From: Lachnospiraceae bacterium
GTDB taxonomy: Bacteria; Bacillota; Clostridia; Lachnospirales; Lachnospiraceae
Reading direction: 5' to 3'
Assembly (NCBI GenBank): GCA_017622505.1
Contig: JAGAQZ010000100.1
Span: 1-32,166, forward strand
Length of the DNA: 32,166 nt
Of the stretch, positions 8,154-19,143 are shown in pieces. A program made the position numbers and the translations under genes. Within the stretch, counting starts at the first letter, position 1, and each line of letters begins with the position of its first letter. The notes beneath the pieces were generated by a model, which saw only the letters and a program-made list of their open reading frames with translations, was not told the origin of the DNA and did no database searches.

Positions 8154-8212
8154 AAAAATACCTCCATACGCCAATAATTTTATTATAAAAACATTATTCT
8201 TTACGCAGACAA

Positions 8213-8240
8213 AGCGACTCTTGTCTAAATAAGAGTCGCT
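8213..8240 (-). terminator. Hairpin downstream of the zinc-ribbon gene
   Basis: Perfect 10-bp arms (AGCGACTCTT and AAGAGTCGCT) with an 8-nt loop, extended by GCAG/CTGC outside. It lies 27 bases after the stop of the minus-strand zinc-ribbon gene and before the start of the GH26 gene. The T-tract is weak on either strand. Confidence 0.5.
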
Positions 8241-8266
8241 CTGCTTTTATTCATTTATTTCGATAA

Positions 8267-9661: not shown

Positions 9662-9781
9662 TTTCTTATCCTCCTCTGTTCCGTATCCTCTTTTACGCTT
9701 ATCGTTAGGTAATTATATTACCACATAGAGAATAATAACACGATTATATAAAAGTAATCAAGCAAAAAAACAAAAAACACC

Positions 9782-9805
9782 CTCATAAAAAGGATGTTTT
9801 TGCCA
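9782..9805 (-). terminator. Former tRNA-Thr terminator, now stranded at attL
   Basis: On the minus strand, an imperfect hairpin (arms around AACATCCT and AGGGTGTT) is followed by a T-rich run (9760-9780). It sits immediately beyond the left copy of the tRNA 3' end. Before the prophage integrated, this would have been the terminator of tRNA-Thr. It is now about 9.3 kb away from that gene. Confidence 0.6.
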
Positions 9806-9826
9806 AGCTGCTAACGGGAATCGGAC
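9805..9826. repeat. attL: 22-bp copy of tRNA-Thr 3' end
   Basis: Exact 22-bp match to 19070-19091, beginning AAGCTGCTAACGGG and ending ATCGGAC. It covers the acceptor and T-arm portion of tRNA-Thr(GGU). Sequence similarity stops abruptly on both sides. It is the left boundary of the prophage. Confidence 0.9.
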
Positions 9827-9917
9827 ACAACTAAAAATACTTATAGAAAGGATAGCTGACATTTCTCTGTAAAATAAAATCGAATAATGATAAATGATAA
9901 GAAAAATCTAGCAAAAA

Positions 9918-9953
9918 ATATTGTCCATTCGGTCAATATCTTTTTTTATTTTA
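9918..9953 (+). terminator. Terminator ahead of the structural operon
   Basis: A 9-bp stem with one T-T mismatch (ATATTGTCC with GGTCAATAT) and an ATTC loop is followed by seven T and further T-rich sequence. In the excised circle this follows the integrase gene and att site. It would end replication-module transcripts before the structural genes begin at 10012. The remaining sequence from 9662 to 10011 holds attL but no open frame. I could not find a convincing promoter for the structural operon here; the best -10-like word, TATAAC near 9976, lacks a -35. Confidence 0.65.
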
Positions 9954-10011
9954 TTCTGTTATAGTCTGTATATAACAAGCATAACACTTTTAAAGAAAGG
10001 AATATAAAAGA

Positions 10012-10257
10012 ATGAAAGAATGTAAATTACTTGGAATTGGTAAGCCTTTTACAAGTTATGAAAAGGAATATGTGAATTTGTATGTTGCTTTGAACAGTCC
10101 GAACGTAACTGGTGTTGTTACTTCTGTTGAAAAATGTCGTTCTTCTCTCTTGCCGGAAGATTTATCAGTAAATGATATGGTGGCAATTGAGTATGATGTT
10201 TTTCGTGGTCGCGATAATCAGTATCGTAAATATGTTTCTTCCGTTCGGAAACTGTAA
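10012..10257 (+). CDS. Small phage protein, candidate ssDNA-binding protein
   Basis: 81 residues, with AGAAAGGAA upstream of the ATG. The protein is mixed-charge, strand-rich and without a membrane span or signal: KECKLLGIGKPFTSYEKEYV, then VTGVVTSVEKC, then NDMVAIEYDVFRG and a basic, Tyr-containing C-terminus (RKYVSSVRKL). Filamentous phages usually encode an OB-fold ssDNA-binding protein (gpV in Ff phages) just before the coat genes, and the size and position fit. I see no diagnostic motif, so the function is inferred from context. Its stop overlaps the ATG of the next frame by one base (TAATG). Confidence 0.45.
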   Translation: MKECKLLGIGKPFTSYEKEYVNLYVALNSPNVTGVVTSVEKCRSSLLPEDLSVNDMVAIEYDVFRGRDNQYRKYVSSVRKL

Positions 10258-10601
10258 TGTCTGATACAGAAGAGATTTTAGAAACAACTCCGGAAGAAAG
10301 TACGGAAGAAATATCGGAAGAAACTTCGGAAGAAAATGTGGAAGAAATTTCGGAAGAAGTATCGGAATAAACTTCGGAAGAAAGTGTGGAAGAAATTTCG
10401 GAAGAAGTATCGGAAGAAACTTCGGAAGAAGTTTCGGAAGAGTTTTCGGAAATCACATCGGAAGTAGGTACGGAAACAGTAGTTTATACTACTGACCCTA
10501 TGGTTGTTCCGTGTTTACAAATTATTATTTGCTTTTTAGGTTGTTTTGCAATCTTTGGTGTTTGCAAATTTGCCTATAAATGTCTAGACGTCATATTTTA
10601 A
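10257..10601 (+). pseudogene. Acidic Ser/Glu-repeat membrane protein interrupted by an in-frame stop
   Basis: An ATG at 10257 overlaps the previous stop (TAATG) and opens a frame of SEE/TEE repeats. TAA at 10368-10370 ends it after 37 residues. Read through, the same frame continues with more EEVSEETSEE repeats into a C-terminal membrane segment (about MVVPCLQIIICFLGCFAIFG) and stops at 10599-10601, giving 114 codons. The stop sits where every neighbouring repeat has GAA, so it looks like one G-to-T change. A GTG at 10386 could restart translation to give 71 residues, but its ribosome site is poor. Placement before the coat gene and the single C-terminal span suggest a small virion or membrane protein. 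Whether it is dead or expressed as a shorter product is unclear. Confidence 0.6.
10323..10418 (+). repeat. Tandem 48-bp duplication in the acidic repeat gene
   Basis: 10323-10370 and 10371-10418 are 48-bp copies differing at only two positions: AAT versus AGT, and TAA versus GAA in the last codon. Both begin ACTTCGGAAGAAA. The first copy therefore ends in the stop codon that the second lacks. Confidence 0.85.
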
Positions 10602-10619
10602 AGAAAGGAGTAAAATGCT

Positions 10620-10823
10620 ATGCCTAATTATTTGTTATCTTTAGTTGCAGAAGGTACTTACACAACCGGTAAAGTGCTTTCAAGTATCGTAACAAGTGAT
10701 ATGATTGGCGGTGTTCTTGATGAAATCATCAATGTTCTTCCTGTCGTATTGCCCGTTGCTATCGGCTTTATTGGCGTTCGTAAGGGTATTGGCTTTGTGC
10801 TTGGTACTTTACACTCTGCGTAA
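10620..10823 (+). CDS. Candidate major coat protein
   Basis: 67 residues, with AGAAAGGAG nine bases before the ATG. An N-terminal Ser/Thr-containing amphipathic part (SLVAEGTYTTGKVLSSIV) and an acidic middle (DEIINV) precede one strongly hydrophobic helix (about 40-62, VLPVVLPVAIGFIGVRKGIG) with a basic RK inside its end. A short helical protein with one span, amphipathic before and basic after, is the pattern of filamentous phage major coat proteins. It is followed immediately by a strong terminator, as in Ff phages, where termination after gene VIII keeps the coat transcript dominant. There is no cleavable signal peptide, so it would insert by its own span. Confidence 0.65.
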   Translation: MPNYLLSLVAEGTYTTGKVLSSIVTSDMIGGVLDEIINVLPVVLPVAIGFIGVRKGIGFVLGTLHSA

Positions 10824-10834
10824 GCCTACTACTG

Positions 10835-10868
10835 AAAGGGTGGAGTCAGCTCCACCCTTTTATTTTTT
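10835..10868 (+). terminator. Terminator after the coat gene
   Basis: A perfect 11-bp stem (AAAGGGTGGAG with CTCCACCCTTT) with a TCAG tetraloop is followed by TATTTTTT. It lies 12 bases beyond the coat stop codon and just before the adsorption gene, whose ribosome site (AGAAAGGG) starts at the end of the U-tract. Probably a partial terminator that sets coat protein above the minor proteins. Confidence 0.85.
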
Positions 10869-10883
10869 AGAAAGGGAATTTGT

Positions 10884-12191
10884 ATGAAAAAAATATTAAA
10901 AATAATACCTTTGATTTTAATTTTTGTATTTGTATTTAGTTTGAATATATATGCTGCTGGTACTGATTCTTCTGATACTCCTATGTTTGCTATAACAAAT
11001 TATGATTCTTATTATGCAGAAATGATTAGTTTGGGGATTGCAAAGTATAAAAGCGATACCGGATATGATGGAAAAGTATTTTGTTATGCGGATTTAGTGA
11101 ATACGGATAGTGCTTCTTTACATCGTTTGGATTTTTATATTGCGCCGCTTGATTCTTCATATTTTACCTATACAACAAACTCTGTTACTTTTCACAATGA
11201 TAGTGGTATATCGCAGTATTATTTGTATGCGTCTGGTGGTGTAAGTAATTATTTTGATGCGCAGTATAAGAACAGTATCACTTCTGTTGTTTTGTCGAAT
11301 AATAGTAGTGCTAAAAATCTTGTAATCTATGTATCGCAAGATTTATCTGCAAATCTAACAGATAAAGAAACGCTTTATTATAAATCACCTGCTCCTTTAT
11401 ATCCGGTTGAAGAAGAACCGGAAGAAGATAACGATTTCTTCTTTGGTGCTTTTGAAGATTTTGCAGATTTCGGTGAAGAAAGTGCAGAACATTATAACAA
11501 TGCTATGAATCAAACTTTAACTGATAATTCTAATAGTCCTAATGATTCAGTATTTATGAATATATTGCAAGCTATGGTTGGAAGCTTGACTACAAATAAT
11601 TCTATTACTCAGCAGATAAGCAATCAGTTGCAGCATTTCACCGAACAATTTTTCAATAACTTTGCTCAATACTCTCTCGGACTTATGACGGATATATTGA
11701 ATACTCTTAATGAATTTACGGGTAAGTTTGACGGACTATTGGATATTGTGAATCAGCTATATAATTCGGGAATCGGCTCAAATGGTGAATTTGGACTTGA
11801 TAACATGTTCTCTTATTGGCTTGTTCCAAGTGATGAGTTTATAGATTCGCAATATAATAAGCTGGTCGGTGCTTTGCCTTTTATCGATGAAATTCAAGGT
11901 ATATCCGATACTTTGCTTAACTTATTTCAAACTGTGGAACCGAAAAGCCCTACTATTACTATTCACGCAGGCACTTATGGATTTATTGTTCTTACAGACG
12001 ATTGTGTGATTGATTTTGATTGGTTTCTTGATTGGAAACCTTATACGGATATATTTATTGCGGTATTTGTATACGCTGGACTTGCTTTGCATTTAGTTAG
12101 ACAGTTGCCTGGTATTCTTGGCGGTACTTCTTCCGTTGTAAATTCAGCTAGTGGACTTGATAAACCGCAGAAAGGGGGAAAAGGCTCGTGA
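10884..12191 (+). CDS. Candidate adsorption (minor coat, pIII-like) protein
   Basis: 435 residues, the largest structural gene of the element. A clear signal peptide (MKKILKIIPLILIFVFVFSL...YAAG, about 1-26) is followed by a Tyr/Ser-rich exported domain (27-170). Next is an acidic hinge (EEEPEEDNDFFFGAFEDFADFGEE, ~175-200), an Asn/Gln-rich helical stretch (200-300), then CVIDFDWFLDWKPYTDIF and one C-terminal membrane span (~385-405, IAVFVYAGLALHLV) ending in a short Gly/Lys cytoplasmic tail. Signal peptide, long exported region and C-terminal anchor at this position, between coat and Zot genes, are the layout of the filamentous phage receptor-binding protein. The sequence is unlike Gram-negative pIII and would need to recognise a Gram-positive surface. 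Its stop overlaps the next start (GTGA). Confidence 0.7.
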   Translation: MKKILKIIPLILIFVFVFSLNIYAAGTDSSDTPMFAITNYDSYYAEMISLGIAKYKSDTGYDGKVFCYADLVNTDSASLHRLDFYIAPLDSSYFTYTTNSVTFHNDSGISQYYLYASGGVSNYFDAQYKNSITSVVLSNNSSAKNLVIYVSQDLSANLTDKETLYYKSPAPLYPVEEEPEEDNDFFFGAFEDFADFGEESAEHYNNAMNQTLTDNSNSPNDSVFMNILQAMVGSLTTNNSITQQISNQLQHFTEQFFNNFAQYSLGLMTDILNTLNEFTGKFDGLLDIVNQLYNSGIGSNGEFGLDNMFSYWLVPSDEFIDSQYNKLVGALPFIDEIQGISDTLLNLFQTVEPKSPTITIHAGTYGFIVLTDDCVIDFDWFLDWKPYTDIFIAVFVYAGLALHLVRQLPGILGGTSSVVNSASGLDKPQKGGKGS

Positions 12192-12451
12192 TATTTGAAA
12201 TGTTAATCGGCCATTCTGTTGAATTTCTTATTGAACACTTTGCAGAAGCTGGCGGTATTGATTGGTTGATTGAATTTATCGAAAATCTTGTTAATTTGTT
12301 GCCTTACTTCAAAGAAATAATCTCATACGCGTATTTCTTTTTACCCGTAGATTATTTTATCCCACTCTTTTCTGTGGTGTTTGGTATTATTGCTTTTCGC
12401 ATTGTTATTGCGATTGTTAAATTGATTATTGATGTAGTGCCGGTATGGTAG
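12188..12451 (+). CDS. Small membrane protein, candidate pVI-like minor coat protein
   Basis: 87 residues starting with GTG at 12188, overlapping the previous stop by four bases. The ribosome site is AGAAAGGGGGAAAAGG. The N-terminal half is amphipathic helix (FLIEHFAEAGGIDWLIEFIENLV). The C-terminal half holds one or two hydrophobic segments (SYAYFFLPVDYFIPLFSVVFG and IAFRIVIAIVKLIIDVV). A short, mostly helical membrane protein between the adsorption gene and the Zot gene is the usual place of the pVI/DUF2523-type minor coat protein that ends the virion with pIII. Assignment rests on position and topology. Confidence 0.6.
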   Translation: MIFEMLIGHSVEFLIEHFAEAGGIDWLIEFIENLVNLLPYFKEIISYAYFFLPVDYFIPLFSVVFGIIAFRIVIAIVKLIIDVVPVW

Positions 12452-12464
12452 AAAGGGAAATTAA

Positions 12465-13310
12465 ATGATAGATATGTTTATGAGAATGTGGGATTTGCTT
12501 AAATATCCCTTTGCGGTATGTATGTCCGTATATTTGATATATTACGGCATTGTTTATTTGAATATCATTATTCAATCGAAAAAGACCGGTAAAAAGCCTT
12601 TGCCGAAACATAAGAAAGTAAAGCAAAAAGGTGTATTTGAAAAGTTATTCATTCAAGCACCGAAACAGATTGCTCTTGATAGATTGAATTATGATCCTGA
12701 TGATTTTACATATCAAGGTATTATTATTTTTGAAGGTAAACAAGGACGCGGCAAGACTATCAGTGAAATCGAATATGCTACGCGTATGCTTGATGAATTT
12801 CCAAAAGCAAAGTGTGTATCGAATCTTGCCTATAACAGACAGAATGCAAAGTTGACACATTGGAAAATGTTGACAGATTATAAGAATGGTCCGCATGGCG
12901 TTGTTGTTATTATTGATGAAACGCAGAACTGGTTTTCTTGCAAAGACAGTAAAAACTTTCCACCGGAAATGCTCTCTGTTGTTACCCAGAACAGAAAGAA
13001 CAGACGTATTATTCTTGGCTCTGCTCAATCATTTTATATGCTGGCTAAAGATATTCGTACACAATGTACGGAAGTACGCTCTTGTTTTACAATTTTAGGC
13101 TGCATAACCTTTGTATTAAGACGTGAACCTATTTGTAATTCAGCTGGTGATGTAGAAAAATGGAAATATCGTGGATTCTATTGGTATGTTCATACGCAGG
13201 AACTCCGTGACGCATACGATACCTATGAAGTAATTGACAGAATGTCAAAAGCCGGTTGGAATGACAGACCGGTTGTTCAGAATACAGAAACTGTTTATGC
13301 AAATAAATAA
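12465..13310 (+). CDS. zot: Zot-like (gpI) phage assembly ATPase
   Basis: 281 residues, the marker gene of filamentous phages: an inner-membrane ATPase driving assembly and extrusion of the virion. The P-loop is FEGKQGRGKT (Walker A, residues 91-98) and Walker B is VVVIIDE (146-152), followed by Q-N-W-F. The sensor-like region TQNRKNRRIILGSAQSF matches Zot proteins. A single membrane span lies at about residues 14-34 (YPFAVCMSVYLIYYGIVYLN), before the ATPase domain, followed by a Lys-rich segment. Ff gpI has its span after the ATPase domain, so the topology differs. The start has AGAAAGGGAA upstream, and a terminator follows the stop at once. No secretin gene is present, consistent with a host lacking an outer membrane. 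Confidence 0.9.
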   Translation: MIDMFMRMWDLLKYPFAVCMSVYLIYYGIVYLNIIIQSKKTGKKPLPKHKKVKQKGVFEKLFIQAPKQIALDRLNYDPDDFTYQGIIIFEGKQGRGKTISEIEYATRMLDEFPKAKCVSNLAYNRQNAKLTHWKMLTDYKNGPHGVVVIIDETQNWFSCKDSKNFPPEMLSVVTQNRKNRRIILGSAQSFYMLAKDIRTQCTEVRSCFTILGCITFVLRREPICNSAGDVEKWKYRGFYWYVHTQELRDAYDTYEVIDRMSKAGWNDRPVVQNTETVYANK

Positions 13311-13341
13311 AGGGAACTCTGCCACGCAGAGTCCCTTTTTA
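13309..13341 (+). terminator. Bidirectional terminator after the Zot gene
   Basis: A 12-bp stem with one bulged A (AAAGGGAACTCTG with CAGAGTCCCTTT) is followed by TTAT. It overlaps the Zot stop codon and lies just beyond the end of the convergent membrane gene (stop at 13346), so it may serve both. Confidence 0.8.
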
Positions 13342-13345
13342 TTTG

Positions 13346-13684
13346 CTATCTGTATCTGTATTTGCCATATTCGTCTTGTGGTTGTGTTTTGGGTTGTTCT
13401 TCTCTCTTCTCGGTATTATTTTTTATTGTTTCTATATTTTCAGCCATTTCCGATACAAGTCCTAAACCTATAACTGATACATAAGATATACCACAACCGG
13501 CAATTGCTATAATGATAAATTCCGCTATTGCTAATATTATAAAAATTGTTAGTGCTCCTTCTATTGGCATTGCATATCCTATACTGACAGTTATAAATGC
13601 AAGACCGCCGGCCAGTAAGATAGATAATACGCAACCGACTATAACTATAACATCAATTAATACTTTTGCTCTTTTATACCACAT
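13346..13684 (-). CDS. Prophage membrane protein of unknown function, antisense to the structural operon
   Basis: 112 residues from the ATG at 13684, chosen because AGGGGG lies nine bases upstream; an in-frame ATG at 13711 lacks a ribosome site. Two or three membrane segments (VLIDVIVIVGCVLSILLAGG, LTIFIILAIAEFIIIAIAGC) are followed by a charged cytoplasmic tail (AENIETIKNNTEKREEQPKT...DEYGKYRYR). I do not recognise the family. It lies beside the repressor and is transcribed in the same leftward direction, away from the virion genes, which suggests expression in the lysogen. A role in superinfection exclusion or host modification is speculation. Confidence 0.65.
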   Translation of the reverse strand: MWYKRAKVLIDVIVIVGCVLSILLAGGLAFITVSIGYAMPIEGALTIFIILAIAEFIIIAIAGCGISYVSVIGLGLVSEMAENIETIKNNTEKREEQPKTQPQDEYGKYRYR

Positions 13685-13745
13685 TGTTTTTATCCCCCTT
13701 GTTTTATACAAGTAGTATAAAAATATATGATTATGATGTCAAATA

Positions 13746-13771
13746 AAAAAGAGTGATTACTCACTCTTTTT
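13746..13771 (-). terminator. Terminator of the repressor gene
   Basis: Perfect 11-bp arms (AAAAAGAGTGA and TCACTCTTTTT) around a 4-nt loop that contains the repressor's TAA. T-runs are present on both sides, so it may act in both directions. Confidence 0.75.
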
Positions 13772-14116
13772 GAATTGTTGTATAAAATTATAAACTGCAT
13801 TCCACTCTTCCGTAGACATGTTAGCAAGTTTTTTTAGTGCATCGTTTAGTGCGGAATTATCAGTTATTTTTTCGTCAATGTAATTTTTTATTTTATCTTT
13901 TTGTGATGTATCTATGAATTTGGGTAATTCATTTTTTTCAATGTATTTTCTTGATATTTTGTATTTGTATTCCATTAACATTAAAGTTTGTTCACTTGGA
14001 ATATTCTCGCCGCTTTCAATTTTGCTTATTGCGCTTCTTGATATTCCTAGTTCTTTTGCAAAGTCTGTTTGGCTCTTTCCTATTGCTTCTCTTACTTCTT
14101 TTATTCTATTGTGCAT
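13757..14116 (-). CDS. XRE-family phage repressor
   Basis: 119 residues. The N-terminal helix-turn-helix of the Cro/CI type (about residues 4-60) reads IKEVREAIGKSQTDFAKELGI then SRSAISKIESGENIPSEQTL, the standard HTH_3 pattern. The C-terminal half is helical and charged, without a LexA/CI-type self-cleaving peptidase domain, so SOS-triggered autocleavage is not expected. AAAGGTGGTGA precedes the ATG. It is divergent from the early genes, its promoter (14140-14168) lies back to back with theirs, and palindromic sites lie between, the standard arrangement of a lysogeny switch. Likely represses replication and early genes and controls itself. Confidence 0.85.
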   Translation of the reverse strand: MHNRIKEVREAIGKSQTDFAKELGISRSAISKIESGENIPSEQTLMLMEYKYKISRKYIEKNELPKFIDTSQKDKIKNYIDEKITDNSALNDALKKLANMSTEEWNAVYNFIQQFKKSE

Positions 14117-14139
14117 TTAATCACCACCTTTCTAATTAA

Positions 14140-14168
14140 AATATATCAAATTATATACATTAAGTCAA
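14140..14168 (-). promoter_or_regulatory. Repressor promoter
   Basis: On the minus strand, -35 TTGACT (14163-14168), a 17-base spacer and -10 TATATT (14140-14145), about 25 bases ahead of the repressor ATG. A TATATCA half-site at 14142-14148 overlaps the -10, fitting autoregulation. Confidence 0.75.
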
Positions 14169-14177
14169 CAAAAACTA

Positions 14178-14206
14178 TTGACAATGCGCATTTAATGATA
14201 TATACT
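14178..14206 (+). promoter_or_regulatory. Early rightward phage promoter
   Basis: Consensus -35 TTGACA (14178-14183), a 17-base spacer and -10 TATACT (14201-14206). It should drive the small-gene cluster and possibly rep-int. The -35 elements of the two divergent promoters are only about nine bases apart. Confidence 0.85.
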
Positions 14207-14235
14207 ATGTATATCAGATGTACATTGAATGTACA
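14196..14235. promoter_or_regulatory. Palindromic operator candidates
   Basis: Two inverted repeats. TGATATA...TATATCA (14196-14216) overlaps the -10 of the early promoter. TGTACATTGAATGTACA (14219-14235) is a perfect 8+1+8 palindrome just downstream of the likely transcription start. A 10-bp palindrome AATGCGCATT (14183-14192) lies in the spacer. Binding by the adjacent XRE repressor is inferred. Confidence 0.65.
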
Positions 14236-14256
14236 AAAAGAAAGGAAATAATATAT

Positions 14257-14475
14257 ATGGTTGATTGGAAAGAATATAACCCTATTGAATTATTTGAACT
14301 TAAGCGTGGAAAAGTATTTTTTTATGGACAAGATTTCGGTTTTTTTGATTGCACTCCTTTTGCGGAATTTTGGGTTTTAAACTTTCTTCCCGTTCTTTTG
14401 ATTTTATCTGATTTTCGCATTTTATCTGTTTTCGAAATGGATTCTTATACTATTTGTATTGTTTCGAGAAACTAG
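14257..14475 (+). CDS. Small phage protein of unknown function
   Basis: 72 residues (MVDWKEYNPIELFELKRGKV...). First gene after the early promoter. I start at 14257 because AAGAAAGGA lies about nine bases before it; an in-frame ATG at 14218 falls inside the operator. The protein is rich in Phe (VFFYGQDFGFFDCTPFAEFW) with a hydrophobic central part (VLNFLPVLLILSDFRIL) that may touch the membrane. No family recognised. Confidence 0.55.
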   Translation: MVDWKEYNPIELFELKRGKVFFYGQDFGFFDCTPFAEFWVLNFLPVLLILSDFRILSVFEMDSYTICIVSRN

Positions 14476-14524
14476 TCATTTATGAAAATTTACATAGATG
14501 AAATAAACGAAAGGAGTAGACAGT

Positions 14525-14635
14525 ATGAGTTATAAGATTGTCGAAAGCGGTTGCTTAATCTTCTGCAATGGTTGTATCGTGGCAGAAACTCCCACAGAAG
14601 AAGAAGCAATCGCGTTCATCAAAGAACATTCTTGA
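14525..14635 (+). CDS. 36-residue phage microprotein
   Basis: MSYKIVESGCLIFCNGCIVA... ending EEAIAFIKEHS. GAAAGGAG lies eight bases before the ATG, an excellent ribosome site, which is the main reason to call so short a frame. It has three cysteines (positions 10, 14, 17) in a CxxxCxxC pattern, which could bind a metal, and an amphipathic C-terminal helix. Function unknown. Confidence 0.6.
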   Translation: MSYKIVESGCLIFCNGCIVAETPTEEEAIAFIKEHS

Positions 14636-14653
14636 TTATATCAGTTTGTTCCG

Positions 14654-14672
14654 GGGCGGTCAAGTGCCGCCC
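14654..14672 (+). terminator. GC-rich hairpin between small phage genes
   Basis: A 7-bp stem (GGGCGGT with GCCGCCC, one G-T pair) with a 5-nt loop. It is not followed by a T-run, so it may be a transcript-stabilising or attenuating hairpin rather than a true terminator. It stands out in an AT-rich element. Confidence 0.4.
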
Positions 14673-14701
14673 TATTATGAGAATAGAAAGGAATAATTAA
14701 A

Positions 14702-14824
14702 ATGATTGATTTTTTTAGTGCTTTAGGTCCTGACGTTGCGTGTATGCTTATATTTTGTGTTTCAGGCTTAATATTCACTTTTTTGGTGGGTATATTTGTT
14801 TTGTTGCATGATATTTTTTATTAG
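14702..14824 (+). CDS. 40-residue phage membrane microprotein
   Basis: MIDFFSALGPDVACMLIFCV... with AGAAAGGAA before the ATG. About residues 13-36 form one membrane span (CMLIFCVSGLIFTFLVGIFVLL). The stop is followed directly by the ribosome site of the next gene. Function unknown; it could be a minor virion protein or a membrane regulator. Confidence 0.6.
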   Translation: MIDFFSALGPDVACMLIFCVSGLIFTFLVGIFVLLHDIFY

Positions 14825-14843
14825 AAGAAAGGAAGAAGAAAAA

Positions 14844-15041
14844 ATGATTGAAGTAAAAAATAATGTTGTAAATGCTCAAGGCCGTGTTAGTGATTTGCTT
14901 ACTGATTTCTCTTGTTTAACTAATGCTCTTTATGTATCAGGTATTAGTCGCACTTGTTTAGTAGCTGCTTTTTACTGTGCTTTTGATGATAGTATTGCTT
15001 GTGAAAAGATTGTTGATGAACGTTATCCGGTAGATAAATAG
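14844..15041 (+). CDS. Small phage protein of unknown function
   Basis: 65 residues (MIEVKNNVVNAQGRVSDLL...). Start set by AGAAAGGAAG upstream. No membrane span; a helical protein with three Cys and a C-terminal charged segment (CEKIVDERYPVDK). The mean spacing to the next gene is about 20 bases, all filled by ribosome site. No family recognised. Confidence 0.6.
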   Translation: MIEVKNNVVNAQGRVSDLLTDFSCLTNALYVSGISRTCLVAAFYCAFDDSIACEKIVDERYPVDK

Positions 15042-15061
15042 AGATAGAAAGGAAAAGTAAA

Positions 15062-15358
15062 ATGAGTAAATTTGTTGGATTTTTAAACACTATGGATTCG
15101 TCTCTTGCGGAATCTTTTCTTTTATTTGTAGGTTTTATTATTTTTTTAATTATTGTTGCTTTTGTTATTTGCCTTTGTGCGCTTTCTGATGTGATTGCCA
15201 AATCTCTTGAATGCAAAAACATTCAGATTTCTAAACGTTTAAATTCTATTGAAGAAAGAATACATTTTTTAGATTGTTCAAAAGTAGATGTGAAATTATT
15301 TTTGAACTTAGAAAAAAAATTAAAAGAAATGGAGAATACTTATGGAACAGATAATTGA
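15062..15358 (+). CDS. Phage membrane protein with C-terminal coiled coil
   Basis: 98 residues, with AGAAAGGAAAAG upstream. One membrane span at about 17-43 (ESFLLFVGFIIFLIIVAFVICL), then a helical, charged region (SKRLNSIEERIHFLD, LFLNLEKKLKEMEN) likely to form a coiled coil in the cytoplasm. It overlaps the next gene by 17 bases, so the two are probably translationally coupled and may work as a pair. Unknown function. Confidence 0.65.
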   Translation: MSKFVGFLNTMDSSLAESFLLFVGFIIFLIIVAFVICLCALSDVIAKSLECKNIQISKRLNSIEERIHFLDCSKVDVKLFLNLEKKLKEMENTYGTDN

Positions 15359-15680
15359 ATATTTAACAGTAGACAAATTTAATTTATTACAGTTGCTACT
15401 TTGGTGTGCGTTTGTTTTTGTTATTACCCTTTGGGGTTGTGTGTCTGCGATTAAAGACAATGCGAAGAAAGAGAAAAAGGCAAAGGAAGTCTTGCTTGAT
15501 GAAATGCATCGCATGTACTTAAAAGAACCTGCTACATATGCAGATGTTTGTGGAAAAGACAAACATGTCACTACCGAAGTAGCGCAGCACTTTCCAACCG
15601 ATGCGGAAGAATGTAAAAATGCTCTCTCGTACCTTGAAAGTTTGAATGTTGAAACAAAGTCATCAGACGGAAAAGCGTAA
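15342..15680 (+). CDS. Phage membrane protein of unknown function
   Basis: 112 residues. GGAG seven bases before the ATG lies within the end of the previous gene. One membrane span at about 15-35 (LLQLLLWCAFVFVITLWGCV) is followed by a Lys-rich stretch (KDNAKKEKKAKEVLLDEMHRMY) and an acidic soluble tail. It resembles the previous protein in plan (one span, then charged helix). No family recognised. Confidence 0.6.
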   Translation: MEQIIEYLTVDKFNLLQLLLWCAFVFVITLWGCVSAIKDNAKKEKKAKEVLLDEMHRMYLKEPATYADVCGKDKHVTTEVAQHFPTDAEECKNALSYLESLNVETKSSDGKA

Positions 15681-15699
15681 CGAAGTGGAGTGTTCCGGC

Positions 15700-15720
15700 A
15701 CCGGCACACGATGTGCCGGT
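15700..15720. other. GC-rich hairpin A with CGA loop
   Basis: A perfect 9-bp stem (ACCGGCACA with TGTGCCGGT) with loop CGA. It lies in the 189-bp non-coding gap 15681-15869. No T-run follows. Candidate replication or packaging signal. The core ACACGATGT recurs in hairpin B. Confidence 0.6.
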
Positions 15721-15765
15721 AGTAATCAAAACAAATTAATGTATGTAGTGGTTTATGGTTTAACA

Positions 15766-15786
15766 GAAAAAACACGATGTTTTTTC
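15766..15786. other. AT-rich hairpin B with CGA loop
   Basis: A perfect 9-bp stem (GAAAAAACA with TGTTTTTTC) with the same CGA loop and the same ACACGATGT core as hairpin A, 66 bases downstream. The T-run arm could also allow it to work as a terminator for the upstream small genes. Confidence 0.55.
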
Positions 15787-15869
15787 GTTCTTCGCGGTGT
15801 GTACTATCGGCTGTGGTAACGAATATGCGTGTCTTAAAAACCCTTATGAATGAAAGGAAGAAATAAAAT

Positions 15870-16055
15870 ATGGCGGGAGATACTATGTTTTCAAATGAAA
15901 ACATTAACAAAATGGTTAATGAAGTTATGGAAGATACAGAGTATGAAGATTTAATTGATGAAATCGGTCAGCTGACCGAATATGAAAAGGATTGTGTAAT
16001 TGCATTTATTCTTGGTCTTACGATGAAGAATGCCTTGATTTTACGCAAATCTTAA
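15870..16055 (+). CDS. Small acidic phage protein
   Basis: 61 residues, acidic and helical: NENINKMVNEVMEDTEYEDLIDEIGQLTEYEKDCVIAFILGLTMKNALILRKS. GAAAGGAAG precedes the ATG. The C-terminal third is hydrophobic but short of a clear membrane span. The pattern LTEYEKDCVIAFILGL resembles small regulators with a helical core, but I recognise no family. It sits between the two non-coding hairpin regions. Confidence 0.6.
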   Translation: MAGDTMFSNENINKMVNEVMEDTEYEDLIDEIGQLTEYEKDCVIAFILGLTMKNALILRKS

Positions 16056-16111
16056 AATGTAACTGTTGGTAGTTATGCTTGTTATTACATCACAATTGAA
16101 AAACTGAATAT

Positions 16112-16206
16112 TGTTTGTGGTTTGTGGTATTTATACGATAAACCCTAGAAAATCAGCGCACTCGGGGGCTACGTCCGAGTGCGCGTCAATGTTTGTGGTT
16201 TGTGGT
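16112..16206 (+). other. Candidate rolling-circle origin: hairpin flanked by 17-bp direct repeats
   Basis: A perfect 10-bp GC-rich stem (GCGCACTCGG, 16156-16165, with CCGAGTGCGC, 16175-16184) has the loop GGGCTACGT. Two identical 17-bp copies of TGTTTGTGGTTTGTGGT flank it at 16112-16128 and 16190-16206. The loop word CTACG resembles the known pMV158-family nick site TACTACG/A, and the Rep gene 360 bp downstream has a pMV158-type HUH domain. The repeats could be Rep binding sites (iterons). Origin function is inferred; a phage packaging signal is the main alternative. Confidence 0.55.
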
Positions 16207-16223
16207 GTTGGAAAGGATATTTT

Positions 16224-16460
16224 ATGAAAAAATCAGAACGTACTGCAATTATTAAATGGTCCGAAAAACTAACAGATGCAGAATTAGAAAAAGAATATTA
16301 TGATTCTGTATTTGATTGTATGGGTAGTGAAGCGGAAAGAATGTATGAATTAGGTTATGATATTCGTGATATTTACGAAAGAGAACGATACGAAAAATAC
16401 TTGTGTGAAAAAAGTGATTTATTAAGAACTTGTTGTGAACAACGTGGTATTGAACTTTAG
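16224..16460 (+). CDS. Small charged phage protein
   Basis: 78 residues from the ATG at 16224 (GGAAAGGA upstream); an in-frame start at 16179 would read through the hairpin and is rejected. Highly charged and helical (SEKLTDAELEKEYYDSVFDCMG...YEKYLCEKSDLLRTCCEQRG). No membrane span. It lies directly downstream of the origin-like repeat. Function unknown; it might assist replication. Confidence 0.6.
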   Translation: MKKSERTAIIKWSEKLTDAELEKEYYDSVFDCMGSEAERMYELGYDIRDIYERERYEKYLCEKSDLLRTCCEQRGIEL

Positions 16461-16485
16461 AAGTGATTTTAGAAAGGTTTTATTT

Positions 16486-16575
16486 ATGAGAGAAAACGGA
16501 AATAAAATTTTATGGATTATAATTGTTACTTTGATTTGTGCGGTTATTCGTGCGCTGGTGTATAAATATGTTTAA
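16486..16575 (+). CDS. 29-residue membrane microprotein overlapping rep
   Basis: MRENGNKILWIIIVTLICAV... ending LVYKYV. AGAAAGG lies nine bases before the ATG. Residues 8-25 form a membrane span with basic residues on the far side. Its stop overlaps the ATG of rep (ATGTTTAA), so translation of the Rep start, which lacks a good ribosome site of its own, may depend on reading this small gene. Confidence 0.6.
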   Translation: MRENGNKILWIIIVTLICAVIRALVYKYV

Positions 16576-17746
16576 TGCACGTGGTTTTGATATAGTGGTT
16601 TATCTCGATAGTTATGAGTGCGATAAACTAACGGAAATATGTAGCAAATTTGAATATATTGCGAAATGGGCATACTGTTTGCACGATAAGGACAAGGATA
16701 AACCGCACTATCATATTATGGTGCAAACTTATGAACCACAAGATAGTACACGTATTGCAAAAGACTTCGGTGTGAAAGAATCGTATGTCGAAAAACCTAG
16801 AAGCAAAAAGAAAACCCATAAATATGATGATATGCTATTGTATTTGATTCATCGTAATGCGCCGGAAAAGTATCAGTATGATGTTGATGATGTAACCGCA
16901 AATTTTGATTATAAGACATTTATCGAAAAGCAAGAAAACAAGGAAAAGAAACAGAATCGAAAAATGGAAATCGTGGACTTAATAAAAAGCGGTACTATTC
17001 GTGAATATAATCTCGGTGAATATGTGAGTGCAGCGGAATATGTAACTTATGCAACCGCTATCAAGTCAGCTTTTGCCTATCGTGAAAAAGTCTGTGTGTC
17101 TGCCGAAAGGAATATGCAGGTCATATACATAACGGGTGATTCGGGTACCGGTAAAACATCACTTGCGAAATACTTTGCAGAGAAACGTGGATTCGATTAT
17201 TTTGTTTCTTCTTCATCGAATGACTTGTTTTATGGATATGGCGGTCAGCCTTGTGTCATTCTTGATGATGTGCGTGGCTCTTTGATGCAGTTCTCGGATT
17301 GGTTGAAACTGTTGGATAATAATGTCAATTCTACAGTAAAGGCCCGTTATAATAATAAAAACCTATCGGAATGTAAGCTGATGATACTGACTTCCGTACA
17401 AAGTGTAGATTCTTTCTATCGTGATATTTACGATAACGATTCGGAAAACATAGTACAGTTAAAAAGAAGATGTGGAGTTCATGTCACTGTAGATACAGAT
17501 TGTTATTATGTGAAACAGTGGGATAAAAAACACAATTGCTACTCTTCCGAAAAATGTTTCAAGAATCGTATTTTTGAAGAGTATGTGAAAAACGCTGCGG
17601 AAAATATGTCAGCTTTGGAAATATTAGGAATCCAAGATGAAGAAGAATATTGTCGCGATCGTAAATTTATGGATATATCCGAAAAGGATTTGGAACAGAT
17701 TGAAATGTTGTTCGGGGTGGAAAATGGAAAAAAAGAAACTGATTGA
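16568..17746 (+). CDS. rep: CRESS-like replication initiator: HUH nickase plus superfamily 3 helicase
   Basis: 392 residues, starting at the ATG at 16568. A GTG at 16538 is in frame but encodes a stretch shared with the overlapping microprotein and has no ribosome site. Residues ~1-125 are a rolling-circle Rep domain of the Rep_2 (pMV158-like) type: the metal-binding HYH (47-49) in KPHYHIMVQ, and YLIHRNAPEKYQYD, where Y92 is the likely nicking tyrosine. Residues ~170-320 are a superfamily 3 helicase: Walker A GDSGTGKTS (190-198), Walker B VILDD (230-234) and motif C LMILTS (271-276). HUH plus SF3 helicase is the plan of Reps in CRESS-DNA viruses and bacterial pCRESS plasmids. It would nick the circular form, unwind it and drive single-strand production. 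Its 3' end overlaps the integrase by 23 bases. Confidence 0.85.
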   Translation: MFNARGFDIVVYLDSYECDKLTEICSKFEYIAKWAYCLHDKDKDKPHYHIMVQTYEPQDSTRIAKDFGVKESYVEKPRSKKKTHKYDDMLLYLIHRNAPEKYQYDVDDVTANFDYKTFIEKQENKEKKQNRKMEIVDLIKSGTIREYNLGEYVSAAEYVTYATAIKSAFAYREKVCVSAERNMQVIYITGDSGTGKTSLAKYFAEKRGFDYFVSSSSNDLFYGYGGQPCVILDDVRGSLMQFSDWLKLLDNNVNSTVKARYNNKNLSECKLMILTSVQSVDSFYRDIYDNDSENIVQLKRRCGVHVTVDTDCYYVKQWDKKHNCYSSEKCFKNRIFEEYVKNAAENMSALEILGIQDEEEYCRDRKFMDISEKDLEQIEMLFGVENGKKETD

Positions 17747-19004
17747 AGATAATTATAAAAATCTCTTGCTATGGTTAGATGAACATAATATGATAACTTA
17801 TAGCAGAGAAATGTCGGCAATTGTAGATATGAAAAAGAGAGATATAATTGCACAACATAAGGAAACAAATAAAATATGGCAGGGAAAGGATAAAAGATAT
17901 TATACCTATGTAGGTATCGGTGCGCGCAGAGTTTTGAGAAGTAGTAAAGATTTGCCGCACTTGGAAGAAATCATTATTGCATACTATCTGGAACATAAGC
18001 TGGTGCGCGCAGACTTGACAAGTTTTGAGTATCTGTTTTATGAATCTTGCGGTTATGCGGTGGAAAGTAATCACTTAAAAAAGAATACCATTGACAGATA
18101 CGCTTGCGACTATCGGAAATTTTTTGAAAATTCTGACTTCGTGAAAAAACGTGTGCAAGATATAACCGCAATTGATGTTGCAGATTTTCTTGATTATGTA
18201 TTGAATCAGTTTGATGTAACGGAAAAATGCTTTTGTAATATTAAAAGCCTGATGTTGTTCGTGTTCAGCTATGCGAAACAACGTAGGCGCATTGAATGTT
18301 TGAATATCAGTGCCACGTTTCACGATTTGCGCTTTGCAAACCGCAGATTCAAACGAAACATAGTAAAAAGCAAGACGCAGGTCTTTAACGTGGAAGAAAC
18401 GCCGCTGCTTTCACAATGTATCGAAAAAGAGTTCCGCGATATTCGTGACTTGGGGTTATTGCTTATGTTACATACCGGATTGCGTGTTGGTGAGTTATCT
18501 GCACTCAAGTGGGATTGTGTCAAGGAAGATGTGCTGGAAGTACGATTGACGGAATGTAAGGAAATGCGTGACGGAAAAACAACGTATTTCAATGACTTAC
18601 CAAAACAAGGGCATATTCGTGATGTGTACTTATCTACGGAATCGAAACGCATTCTTGCACTGATTGATTGTTTGCAGAAAGAAAAACGTATCATCAGTGA
18701 ATATGTGGTGTGTGATGATATTGGACTACAGTGTCATTGCTACATGTTCAATCGTGCATTAAAGCATTACTGTAAAAAGCTGGGTATCTTGGAACGCTCG
18801 CCGCATAAGTTACGAAAGACATATTCTACCGCAATGCTTGATTGTGGTTGTGATGTAAAATTCGTACAGGAACAAATGGGGCATTCTGATATACAGACAA
18901 CTTATAAAAGTTATCAGTACACAAGACAAGTAGAAAATACCTTTATCAATTTTGCCGATAAAGTATCGTTAGAATTAAAAAAAGAATCTAATCAGCAAAT
19001 TTGA
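17724..19004 (+). CDS. int: Tyrosine-family site-specific integrase
   Basis: 426 residues. The ATG at 17724 lies inside the end of rep, with GGGGTGG just upstream, so the two are probably co-translated. Residues ~60-220 form the SAM-like core-binding domain, and the C-terminal catalytic domain has the family motifs: R254 in HTGLRVGEL, HKLR (H361, R364), MGH (H387) and the nucleophile Y397 in TTYKSYQY. This enzyme should integrate the circular phage at tRNA-Thr and, perhaps with a helper, excise it. The gene ends 65 bases before attR, the usual position next to the attachment site. Many filamentous phages instead borrow host XerCD, so having its own integrase is notable. No excisionase is recognised. 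Confidence 0.92.
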   Translation: MEKKKLIEDNYKNLLLWLDEHNMITYSREMSAIVDMKKRDIIAQHKETNKIWQGKDKRYYTYVGIGARRVLRSSKDLPHLEEIIIAYYLEHKLVRADLTSFEYLFYESCGYAVESNHLKKNTIDRYACDYRKFFENSDFVKKRVQDITAIDVADFLDYVLNQFDVTEKCFCNIKSLMLFVFSYAKQRRRIECLNISATFHDLRFANRRFKRNIVKSKTQVFNVEETPLLSQCIEKEFRDIRDLGLLLMLHTGLRVGELSALKWDCVKEDVLEVRLTECKEMRDGKTTYFNDLPKQGHIRDVYLSTESKRILALIDCLQKEKRIISEYVVCDDIGLQCHCYMFNRALKHYCKKLGILERSPHKLRKTYSTAMLDCGCDVKFVQEQMGHSDIQTTYKSYQYTRQVENTFINFADKVSLELKKESNQQI

Positions 19005-19036
19005 ACGAAATTGACTAGATTCTTTCCTATGCTTCT

Positions 19037-19066
19037 CGAAAACCCTACGTTGCATAAGGGTTTTCG
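19037..19066. terminator. Hairpin between integrase and tRNA-Thr
   Basis: A perfect 10-bp stem (CGAAAACCCT with AGGGTTTTCG) with a 10-nt loop. It follows the integrase stop by 32 bases. On the minus strand it sits four bases beyond the 3' end of tRNA-Thr, so it may replace the terminator that integration moved to the left end. No long T-run outside the stem. Confidence 0.55.
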
Positions 19067-19069
19067 GGT

Positions 19070-19091
19070 AAGCTGCTAACGGGAATCGGAC
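19070..19091. repeat. attR: 22-bp attachment core within tRNA-Thr
   Basis: Exact copy of the repeat at 9805-9826, covering the last 21 bases of the tRNA gene plus one base. The incoming phage copy restores a complete tRNA gene on this side. Confidence 0.9.
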
Positions 19092-19143
19092 CCGTGACCT
19101 CCGCACTACCAATGCGACGCTCTACCGACTGAGCCATAGCAGC
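19071..19143 (-). tRNA. tRNA-Thr (anticodon GGU)
   Basis: 73 bases without encoded CCA. The acceptor GCTGCTA pairs with TAGCAGC, and the D stem is GCTC/GAGC. The anticodon stem TCGCA/TGCGG has a loop TTGGTAG giving GGU. The T stem is ACGGG/CCCGT with loop TCCGATT. The discriminator base is U, as in many Thr tRNAs. All stems close, so the gene remains functional after phage insertion at its 3' end. Confidence 0.95.

What the first reader, a model, noticed from the sequence alone, without database searches (positions are those of the whole stretch)
16568..17746. Filamentous-phage element replicated by a CRESS-type Rep (HUH plus SF3 helicase)
Rep carries HYH (47-49) and YLIHRN (Y92) of a Rep_2/pMV158-like nickase, followed by a full superfamily 3 helicase (GDSGTGKTS, VILDD, LMILTS). 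Known: this architecture belongs to CRESS-DNA viruses and bacterial pCRESS plasmids, whereas well-studied filamentous phages use other initiators and rely on host helicase. Inference: this phage arose by joining a pCRESS-type plasmid replicon to an inovirus morphogenesis module, giving a helicase-independent filamentous phage in a Gram-positive host.
Basis: partly seen in the sequence, partly recalled or inferred. Interest (0 to 1): 0.88.

Follow-up and report, generated by a model that had tools for sequence, protein, structure and literature searches.

The report
Filamentous prophage with plasmid-type helicase Rep
A gut bacterium carries an integrated thread-shaped virus whose DNA-copying enzyme, and a likely start site for it, are of a kind known from small plasmids and related to those of ring-shaped DNA viruses of animals and plants, which shows how freely such viruses swap their copying machinery.

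Summary
Window 16568-17746 encodes a 392-aa Rep with an HUH nuclease (HYH 47-49, YLIH 92-95) and an SF3 helicase, both above Pfam cut-offs. It lies in a 9.3-kb filamentous prophage (Zot, coat-like ORFs, repressor, integrase) in tRNA-Thr, between 22-bp att repeats at 9805 and 19070; a sister genome has the empty site. The Rep is full-length kin of pCPa-like (YLxH) pCRESS plasmid Reps (36-40% identity), not of usual inovirus initiators. A likely origin lies upstream: a 10-bp stem with loop GGGCTACGT at 16156-16184 between iterons. Related Zot phages carry seven Rep classes; a sister prophage in the same tRNA site has a p4M-like HUH-SF3 Rep instead. A second prophage in the window's genome pairs such a Rep with a circovirus-type TAGTATTAC hairpin. 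CRESS-Rep inoviruses are already in print (Roux 2019; Tisza 2020), so this is a new variant of a known kind. Whole-Rep capture is preferred over helicase gain by a phage Rep, but the latter is not excluded. 'Helicase-independent' replication is untested.

The parts
9805..9826 (.). att repeat, distal copy (22 bp)
   Evidence: exact direct repeat of 19070-19091; empty site in sister-genome locus L157
10012..10257 (+). 81-aa ORF, first gene of the morphogenesis block; function not assigned
   Evidence: ORF; no Pfam or PHROG hit; an ORF lies at the same position in sister prophage L022
10386..10601 (+). acidic-repeat ORF with a C-terminal hydrophobic segment, candidate minor virion protein; the 12-nt repeat array begins upstream in an ORF from 10257 that ends inside the array
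   Evidence: L022 has an uninterrupted ORF of 119 aa of similar make-up
10620..10823 (+). 67-aa candidate major coat protein
   Evidence: size and hydrophobic stretch; homologous ORF in L022, phmmer E 6.7e-18; no Pfam family above cut-off
10884..12191 (+). 435-aa candidate adsorption (gp3-like) protein
   Evidence: homolog in L022 E 2.1e-24; position before the gp6-like ORF and Zot; no Pfam or PHROG hit
12188..12451 (+). 87-aa candidate gp6-like membrane protein
   Evidence: homolog in L022 E 8.6e-6
12465..13310 (+). Zot (pI-like) virion assembly ATPase
   Evidence: PF05707 25.1 bits over cut-off 20.3; 48% identical in L022; 20 + 1 related loci
13757..14116 (-). Cro/CI-type HTH repressor
   Evidence: PF01381 E 5.8e-15
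16112..16131 (+). iteron block left of the origin hairpin
   Evidence: 20-nt repeat, 95% identical to 16190-16209; its unit TTTGTGGT occurs four times in the element, only in these two blocks
16156..16184 (+). proposed nicking origin: 10-bp perfect stem, 9-nt loop GGGCTACGT
   Evidence: top-scoring hairpin within 700 nt upstream of rep; loop class in 15 of 26 YLxH replicons, 0.005 expected
16190..16209 (+). iteron block right of the origin hairpin
16568..17746 (+). Rep: HUH nuclease (Pfam 4-115) plus SF3 helicase (Pfam 186-276)
17724..19004 (+). tyrosine integrase overlapping the end of rep (longest ORF starts at 17637; the start at 17724 is my reading of the translation)
   Evidence: PF00589 E 8.9e-22; phrog_1 E 2.8e-37
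19070..19091 (.). att repeat, tRNA copy (22 bp)
   Evidence: overlaps tRNA-Thr 19071-19143 on the minus strand

Best explanation
The element 9805-19091 is a temperate filamentous phage of a Lachnospiraceae bacterium that replicates by rolling circle with an HUH-SF3 Rep of the pCPa-like (YLxH, pCRESS4-8) plasmid group. Likely cycle: the integrase excises the element at tRNA-Thr; Rep binds the TTTGTGGT iterons at 16112-16131 and 16190-16209 and exposes the 16156-16184 hairpin; H47/H49 hold a metal ion and Y92 nicks the GGGCTACGT loop and stays on the 5' end; the SF3 domain helps to unwind the template; the displaced single strand is coated and pumped out through the Zot complex. Shown: gene order, both Rep domains, att repeats with an empty site in a relative, hairpin and iterons, relationship to plasmid Reps. 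Inferred: nicking at this loop, binding to these iterons, unwinding by the SF3 domain, virion production. Close relatives of this phage, one in the same tRNA site, carry other rep modules, so the module is exchanged.
For: Both domains above Pfam cut-offs. Full-length plasmid kin: 18 of 29 matched records are phytoplasma plasmids, pCPa included at 37.5%. Tree of 27 SF3 Reps: window with integrated L015-L017 and four phytoplasma plasmids 90/89; p4M-like Reps apart 100/100. att repeats and tRNA; empty site in L157. Origin: top-scoring hairpin within 700 nt upstream of rep; loop class in 15 of 26 YLxH replicons against 0.005 expected by shuffling, 0 of 10 Zot phages with other Reps, 0 of 22 p4M-like Reps; iterons on both sides here, and long ones in L015 and L040. 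Rep exchange: 15 of 22 Zot-related loci have an assigned Rep, in seven classes; L022 has the same backbone and tRNA-Thr site with a p4M-like Rep.
Against: The fresh test of the YLxH loop motif was weaker: 4 of 11; misses were five distant IMG/VR contigs, a second Leptotrichia plasmid, and an L. plantarum plasmid that has the loop on an AT-rich stem which my filter rejected. Of nine origin hairpins examined for flanking repeats, long ones on both sides were seen in the window, L015 and L040, shorter ones in L019 and L. wadei, none convincing in the other four. The window's place in the pCRESS7-like set has moderate support (83/70 whole Rep; 84/71 nuclease). Nuclease data alone do not reject grouping with helicase-less phage Reps (p 0.08-0.12). 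The acidic-repeat ORF is interrupted, so the prophage may be partly defective. There are no virion, excision or activity data; coat, gp3 and gp6 calls rest on position and on L022. No structure model could be made.
Confidence: 0.8

Rival explanations
1. Domain-gain rival: a resident helicase-less YLxH phage Rep and its GGGCTACGT origin stayed in place and acquired the linker and SF3 helicase of a pCRESS Rep by recombination; only the helicase half is of plasmid origin.
For: The window's loop GGGCTACGT is that of 4 of 8 helicase-less YLxH inoviruses in the first set (bajarodino 21, two porcine records, Dulem 75) and of bajarodino 20 and 48 and porcine L150 in the fresh set; no plasmid examined has it. 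Nuclease-only AU tests do not reject window with those phages (p 0.086, 0.083, 0.122). In L035 a helicase-bearing and a helicase-less Rep that are 55% identical in the nuclease sit in one contig.
Against: The best nuclease tree puts the window with helicase-bearing pCRESS Reps (84/71; highest identity 41%, to L017). The full-length alignment to pCPa-like Reps (36-45%) runs through nuclease, linker and helicase.
Confidence: 0.2
2. Accidental neighbourhood: a pCRESS integrative plasmid and a filamentous prophage lie side by side, and Rep does not replicate the phage.
For: The YLxH HUH-SF3 elements L015-L020 have no clear Zot in the stretch fetched (several of these stretches are cut by contig ends).
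Against: One pair of att repeats encloses both modules with one integrase and one repressor, and the sister genome lacks the whole block. L022 has the same layout (zot, repressor, rep, integrase) in the same site with a different HUH-SF3 Rep in the same slot. L035, L040, L022, L024, L029, L030 and five GenBank inoviruses also pair an HUH-SF3 Rep with Zot.
Confidence: 0.04
3. Decayed remnant: the module is as described but the prophage is dead (not exclusive of the best explanation).
For: The acidic-repeat ORF is interrupted inside the repeat array. Draft genome contig, no read data.
Against: Zot, Rep, integrase, repressor, coat-like and gp3-like ORFs are open, and the att repeats are identical.
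Confidence: 0.25

Closest known systems
pCRESS4-8 / YLxH supergroup (pCPa-like cluster), especially phytoplasma plasmids (pCRESS7 in Kazlauskas 2019)
   Same: HUH nuclease with YLxH, SF3 helicase, 36-40% identity over 74-87% of the Rep; a GGGC-type hairpin upstream of rep on the rep strand
   Different: Here inside a filamentous phage, whereas Kazlauskas 2019 found no known viral structural genes in its pCRESS elements. Loop GGGCTACGT; 5 of 8 plasmids examined have GGGCTTGT, and pCPa, S. haemolyticus p4 and pRGI00478 have near variants.
Inoviruses with CRESS-type Rep: iPF_00203 of Roux 2019, ctbe30/ctbc27 of Tisza 2020, bajarodino viruses 2, 13, 30, 56, 74 in GenBank
   Same: Zot phage whose Rep joins an HUH nuclease and an SF3 helicase
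   Different: The bajarodino Reps are p4M-like (pCRESS1-3 side) with TAGTATTAC hairpins, a different Rep branch. The branch of iPF_00203 and of ctbe30/ctbc27 was not tested here.
Helicase-less YLxH inoviruses (porcine Inovirus sp., Dulem 75, bajarodino 20, 21, 48)
   Same: Zot phages with a Rep_OBD-type nuclease and the same origin loop GGGCTACGT
   Different: Their Rep ends after the nuclease (161-208 aa)
Enterocloster inoviruses (PMC10061712; search listing and passages)
   Same: Zot filamentous phages of Gram-positive gut bacteria, secreted in vitro by the title
   Different: The main text has no mention of helicase, HUH or rolling circle; the Rep type was not compared

Membership tests
pCRESS YLxH supergroup (pCRESS4-8) | HUH motif and YLxH in motif III | tested here: met
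   HYH 47-49, YLIH 92-95
pCRESS YLxH supergroup (pCRESS4-8) | C-terminal SF3 helicase with Walker A and B | tested here: met
   PF00910 above cut-off; GDSGTGKT, VILDDVR
pCRESS YLxH supergroup (pCRESS4-8) | groups with pCPa and kin in a tree | tested here: met
   90/89 with L015-L017 and four phytoplasma plasmids, below the tree tool's star threshold; subgroup pCRESS7 only 83/70, so the subgroup is not settled
Filamentous phage (Tubulavirales) | Zot/pI-like assembly ATPase | tested here: met
   PF05707 25.1 bits, cut-off 20.3; the family alone also rang in 5 of 14 control genomes, so context counts too
Filamentous phage (Tubulavirales) | small helical major coat protein | tested here: inconclusive
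   67-aa candidate without a family hit; homolog in L022
Filamentous phage (Tubulavirales) | ssDNA virions extruded from the host | not testable with these tools
   needs culture or virome reads
Usual inovirus initiators (Phage_CRI, Rep_trans, Rep_1) | match to one of those Pfam families | tested here: not met
   no such match among the 21 families listed for the Rep at E up to 1
CRESS-DNA viruses (Cressdnaviricota) | origin nonanucleotide NANTATTAC in a hairpin (general form recalled; TAGTATTAC given for a member of Circoviridae in PMC6723397) | tested here: not met
   no TAGTATTAC hairpin within 2,500 nt upstream of the window Rep; the loop is GGGCTACGT. Met by the sister prophage L024
CRESS-DNA viruses (Cressdnaviricota) | capsid gene of the eukaryotic-virus kind | not tested
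   no search aimed at jelly-roll capsids was made; the structural genes found are of filamentous-phage type
pE194/pMV158-like Reps | Rep_OBD without a helicase domain | tested here: not met
   helicase present

The most novel reading that the evidence does not exclude
CRESS-type replicons (Rep together with its own stem-loop) are interchangeable cassettes in filamentous phages, taken up at least three separate times and from both arms of the pCRESS tree, so that bacterial viruses, not only plasmids, carry circovirus-type origins. One bacterial genome holds one phage of each arm. The SF3 domain is gained or lost inside phage lineages: the window combines a plasmid-like helicase Rep with a phage-type origin loop, and one contig (L035) holds a helicase-bearing and a helicase-less sister Rep.
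Probability: 0.55. Interest if true: 0.75.

Novelty: new variant of a known kind. Interest (0 to 1): 0.62.

Why it matters
[quoted passage not shown] Filamentous phages that carry both pCRESS branches with matching origins would place such replicons inside bacterial viruses, give natural pairs for testing what the SF3 domain adds to rolling-circle replication, and supply two sequence-defined origin classes (GGGCT(TG/ACG)T and TAGTATTAC) that make nicking assays straightforward.

Tried and rejected
Single-protein pattern searches for the Rep in genome contigs and viral contigs found none, and alignment scans of viral contigs with A2 and A3 found none; the genome search and the plasmid and phage collections were used instead. 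A pMV158-type TACTACGA site (motif recalled) in the element: not found. A TAGTATTAC hairpin for the window: not found (a TACTATTAC at 11951 lies inside the gp3-like gene and was not taken as an origin). The class-level search for more YLxH Reps gave no new genome (2 of 391, both already seen). AU tests: of the sets tested, window + L040 and window + L035 + L040 leave out the Leptotrichia plasmid that is sister to L040, and window + p4M-like phages leaves out p4M itself, so part of those very low p values reflects the omission; window + L035 (p 0.010) is the cleaner one. A test of window plus GGGCTACGT-loop phages (p 0.003) was set aside for the same reason; sets that are clades gave p 0.086 and 0.083, and window with all 11 helicase-less rows 0.122 (the script's own label for that last set says nine). 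The iteron script missed the window's iterons because it skipped words of two letters; searches give them. Rows dropped before trees: eight helicase-less or unlike Reps from the 27-row tree; ten p4M-like Reps (p4M included) and bajarodino 76 from the nuclease tree; also both L035 Reps, L036 and L008, with five rows added. Not in any tree: the partial Rep of G227 (L021) and pRGI00478 (L060). L027 is the same contig as L022 and was counted once. Seven of 22 Zot-related loci had no Rep among the ORFs that I scanned (26 chosen ORFs, plus my Rep profiles on all ORFs of 60 aa or more).
Full report
1. What is there. The 392-aa Rep at 16568-17746 is an open frame with Pfam Rep_OBD (residues 4-115, E 5.6e-12) and RNA_helicase (186-276, E 2.9e-9), both above their cut-offs; the other 19 listed families, mostly P-loop ATPases, are below theirs. 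NCBIfam and PHROGs give only weak matches, mostly to P-loop families. In the PDB the best match is a 'Replication-associated protein' (9pqq, E 4.9e-11, residues 119-283).

2. Surroundings. A 22-bp repeat at 9805-9826 and 19070-19091 brackets the element; the second copy overlaps tRNA-Thr(GGT), 19071-19143 on the minus strand. Inside lie a Zot ATPase (12465-13310), gp3-, gp6- and coat-like ORFs, a repressor (13757-14116, minus) and a tyrosine integrase that overlaps the end of rep. A whole-genome search with the Zot family in 8 genomes found the window's Zot over the cut-off but missed that of G005, and rang in 5 of 14 control genomes, so the family score alone is neither fully sensitive nor specific. 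In a genome of the same genus (G006, locus L157) the left-flank gene lies next to an intact tRNA-Thr with one copy of 21 of the 22 att bases: an empty site. Host: G005 has the same genus code as the window's genome, and its 80,174-base contig C47 corresponds to SVFH01000016.1, titled Lachnospiraceae bacterium SIG327 (same length and same Zot and Rep scores).

3. A sister phage with another Rep. In G005 (L022) the same backbone (Zot 302 bits, gp3-like E 2e-24, coat-like E 7e-18, integrase E 3.5e-47) sits in the same tRNA-Thr between 21-bp repeats at L022:2454 and 11673. Its Rep in the same slot matches the window's only weakly (35 bits) and is of another HUH-SF3 kind: HLH, YINK, Walker A and B. 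The window's own genome holds a second filamentous prophage (L024, G000:C141) with Zot (PF05707 26.4 bits) and an SSB and a Rep 54% identical to that of L022, between 22-bp repeats at L024:8005 and 18167, the former in tRNA-Gly. In the plasmid collection the L024 Rep matches one record, p4M of Bifidobacterium (28%, E 1e-15), the name-giver of the p4M-like cluster (pCRESS1-3) of Kazlauskas 2019. The window's Rep matches 29 plasmid records, 18 of them phytoplasma plasmids, including pCPa, the name-giver of the other cluster (pCRESS4-8).

4. Rep exchange along the Zot lineage. A profile of the window and L022 Zots found 20 loci in genome contigs and one in viral contigs. With the window, and L027 counted as L022, that is 22 loci. 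Among the ORFs scanned with Pfam or with my Rep profiles, 15 of 22 have a Rep: Rep_OBD + SF3 in window, L035, L040; p4M-like + SF3 in L022, L029, L030; Phage_CRI in L026, L031; Rep_1 in L037, L041; Rep_trans in L043; REP_ORF2-G2P in L038, L039, L046; Rep_OBD with RepB_C and no helicase in L036. L040's Rep_OBD (19.0 bits) and the L029/L030 matches are below Pfam cut-offs; L029/L030 score 351-352 bits with the p4M-like profile. By simple patterns the Walker B of L035 and both Walker motifs of L040 are not met, so their helicases may be degenerate. L029 and L030 Reps lie within one att pair with their Zot; no att pair was found for L040. On a Zot tree of 28 rows, 18 labelled, Rep class needs 10 changes and SF3 presence 4; the window stands with L022 and L046 (98/98), which carry other Rep classes.

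5. Rep phylogeny. In a 27-row tree of SF3 Reps the window joins integrated elements L015-L017 and four phytoplasma plasmids (90/89; 83/70 without L017). L040 is sister to a Leptotrichia plasmid Rep (100/100), and L035 joins that pair (96/93); the Zots of L035 and L040 are sisters too (98/95), so those two may stem from one entry. Nine p4M-like phage Reps and p4M form a separate set (100/100). AU tests disfavour single clades for window + L035 (p 0.010), window + L040 (3e-4), window + L035 + L040 (4e-69) and window + the nine p4M-like phage Reps (6e-70); the last three sets leave out plasmid rows that nest among them, which lowers p by itself. Long branches (L035, L062, L064, L061, L065) limit what can be said of those rows. 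Three separate entries of HUH-SF3 Reps into Zot phages (window; L035/L040; p4M-like) are the simplest reading.

6. How common. In 378 genomes of the family, the YLxH profile scores above 490 bits in 4 genomes (G000, G151, G223, G284; members of these were used to build it) and the p4M-like profile matches 21 at E up to 1e-20. The window's Zot profile matches 4 of 397. Zot profiles find no clear Zot near the YLxH Reps of L015-L020 (L020 has a 434-aa ORF at E 5e-5), and a clear one in 3 of 21 p4M-like loci (L132, L139, L140), with a weaker one in L127; several stretches end at contig ends, so these are lower bounds. Thus most of the pCRESS Reps looked at sit without a detected Zot, in line with Kazlauskas 2019, and phages are a minority.

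7. The origin. The top-scoring hairpin within 700 nt upstream of the window Rep is 16156-16184, a 10-bp stem with loop GGGCTACGT, between two iteron blocks at 16112-16131 and 16190-16209; the unit TTTGTGGT occurs four times in the element, all there. Across YLxH replicons the loop class GGGCT(TG or ACG)T occurs in such a hairpin on the Rep strand in 15 of 26 (expected from 200 dinucleotide shuffles each: 0.005), and the broader GGGCN(1-3)GT in 20 of 26 (0.105). Ten Zot phages with other Reps (one of them the helicase-less Rep_OBD phage L036): 0 of 10. Twenty-two p4M-like Reps: 0 of 22. The motif was found in those 26, some of them close kin, so the fresh test matters: 4 of 11, the misses being an L. 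plantarum plasmid (loop present, AT-rich stem rejected by my filter), a second Leptotrichia plasmid and five distant IMG/VR contigs. By group: GGGCTTGT in 5 of 8 plasmids, 4 of 6 integrated elements and phage L040; GGGCTACGT in the window and 4 of 8 helicase-less inoviruses; neither in the two L035 Reps. The three fresh phages that hit also have GGGCTACGT. Flanking repeats on both sides: 17 nt or so in L015 and 18 in L040, 8 in L019, 10 in L. wadei; nothing convincing in four other plasmids.

8. p4M-like phages have a circovirus-type origin. TAGTATTAC in a hairpin on the Rep strand occurs in 6 of 10 replicons of the first set (L024 in the window's genome and bajarodino 2, 13, 30, 56, 74; not L022, L029, L030, p4M) and in 15 of 22 Reps of 21 fresh Lachnospiraceae loci (expected 0.005; two of these loci, L133 and L134, are near-copies); 0 of 10 other-Rep phages and 0 of 26 YLxH replicons. 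Most lie within some 450 nt of the Rep start, but those of L024 and L130 lie about 1.9-2.0 kb upstream. The p4M plasmid has TAGTGTTAC 57 nt upstream. PMC6723397 gives TAGTATTAC for a member of Circoviridae (passages). L022, L029 and L030 have hairpins with divergent loops, whose role is open.

9. Gain or loss of the helicase. On nuclease domains, L035's two Reps (493 aa with helicase, 177 aa without; 55% identical) pair at 100/99, and one clade of helicase-bearing Reps is rejected (p 2e-7). Without L035 the helicase-bearing rows form one side of a weak branch (74/60). The window's nuclease sits with pCRESS (84/71), but grouping with helicase-less phages is not rejected (p 0.08-0.12). The window may therefore be a captured whole Rep (preferred) or a phage Rep that gained a helicase.

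10. Prior knowledge. Kazlauskas 2019 (PMC6668415; outline and passages): inovirus Reps fall in five HUH clusters and lack the helicase, and no pCRESS element had known viral structural genes. Roux 2019 (PMC6813254; section 9 and passages): one inovirus RCR family, iPF_00203, has an S3H motif. Tisza 2020 (PMC7000223; passages): ctbe30 and ctbc27 join CRESS Rep with inovirus genes, read as a bacteria-tropic branch of CRESS viruses. PMC8780604 (passages): pCRESS7 members average 33% identity, and binding of the nonanucleotide in pCRESS7 and other groups needs study. For HUH-SF3 Reps or CRESS-type origins in filamentous phages I searched: (0 papers each), 'pCRESS + filamentous phage' (1), 'nonanucleotide + inovir' (5 papers, passages read in 2), 'pCRESS + nonanucleotide' (3, passages read in 1), and (4 papers; 6 papers), of which I read passages in Kazlauskas and Tisza. 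None of the passages described such origins. The library is partial and holds no paper with 'bajarodino', and no supplements could be read, so absence from print is not shown.

11. Mechanism, with status. Shown: modules, boundaries, hairpin, iterons, relationships. From family knowledge: HUH tyrosine nicking and 5' attachment (as summarised in the passages), Zot as packaging/assembly ATPase. Inferred: that this loop is the nick site, that Rep binds the iterons, that SF3 unwinds, that the phage depends less on host helicase, that virions are made.

12. Verdict. A real and coherent observation, correctly read in its main point. The kind was already reported, so it is a new variant: a pCPa-branch Rep in a filamentous phage, with a proposed origin, and with a p4M-branch phage in the same genome.

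Noticed in passing
L024 (G000:C141), 8005-18188: Second filamentous prophage in the window's genome, in tRNA-Gly, with a p4M-like HUH-SF3 Rep, an SSB and a TAGTATTAC hairpin.
   Followed up: yes
L035, 1271-1804 and 6222-7703: One 7,956-base contig with a 21-bp terminal overlap (probably circular) carries two sister Reps, one with and one without a helicase domain.
   Followed up: partly
window 10257-10601: Acidic 12-nt repeat array: the ORF from 10257 ends inside the array and a second ORF continues from 10386; L022 has an uninterrupted ORF of similar make-up.
   Followed up: partly
GenBank records of bajarodino viruses 2, 13, 30, 56, 74 (L068, L069, L052, L053, L054): Deposited inovirus genomes with p4M-like HUH-SF3 Reps and TAGTATTAC hairpins, annotated as replication initiator protein.
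   Followed up: yes
L073 (bajarodino 50), 452 nt upstream of rep: Loop TACTACGACT on a 16-bp stem, like the pMV158-type nick site (recalled), in a helicase-less YLxH inovirus.
   Followed up: no
L017 (G223), 1778-2632: Element with a YLxH HUH-SF3 Rep, an ORF that looks like a plasmid relaxase (by eye, no family scan) and an integrase, with no Zot found.
   Followed up: no
L054 and L069: bajarodino 74 and 13 carry an annotated transposase near rep.
   Followed up: no
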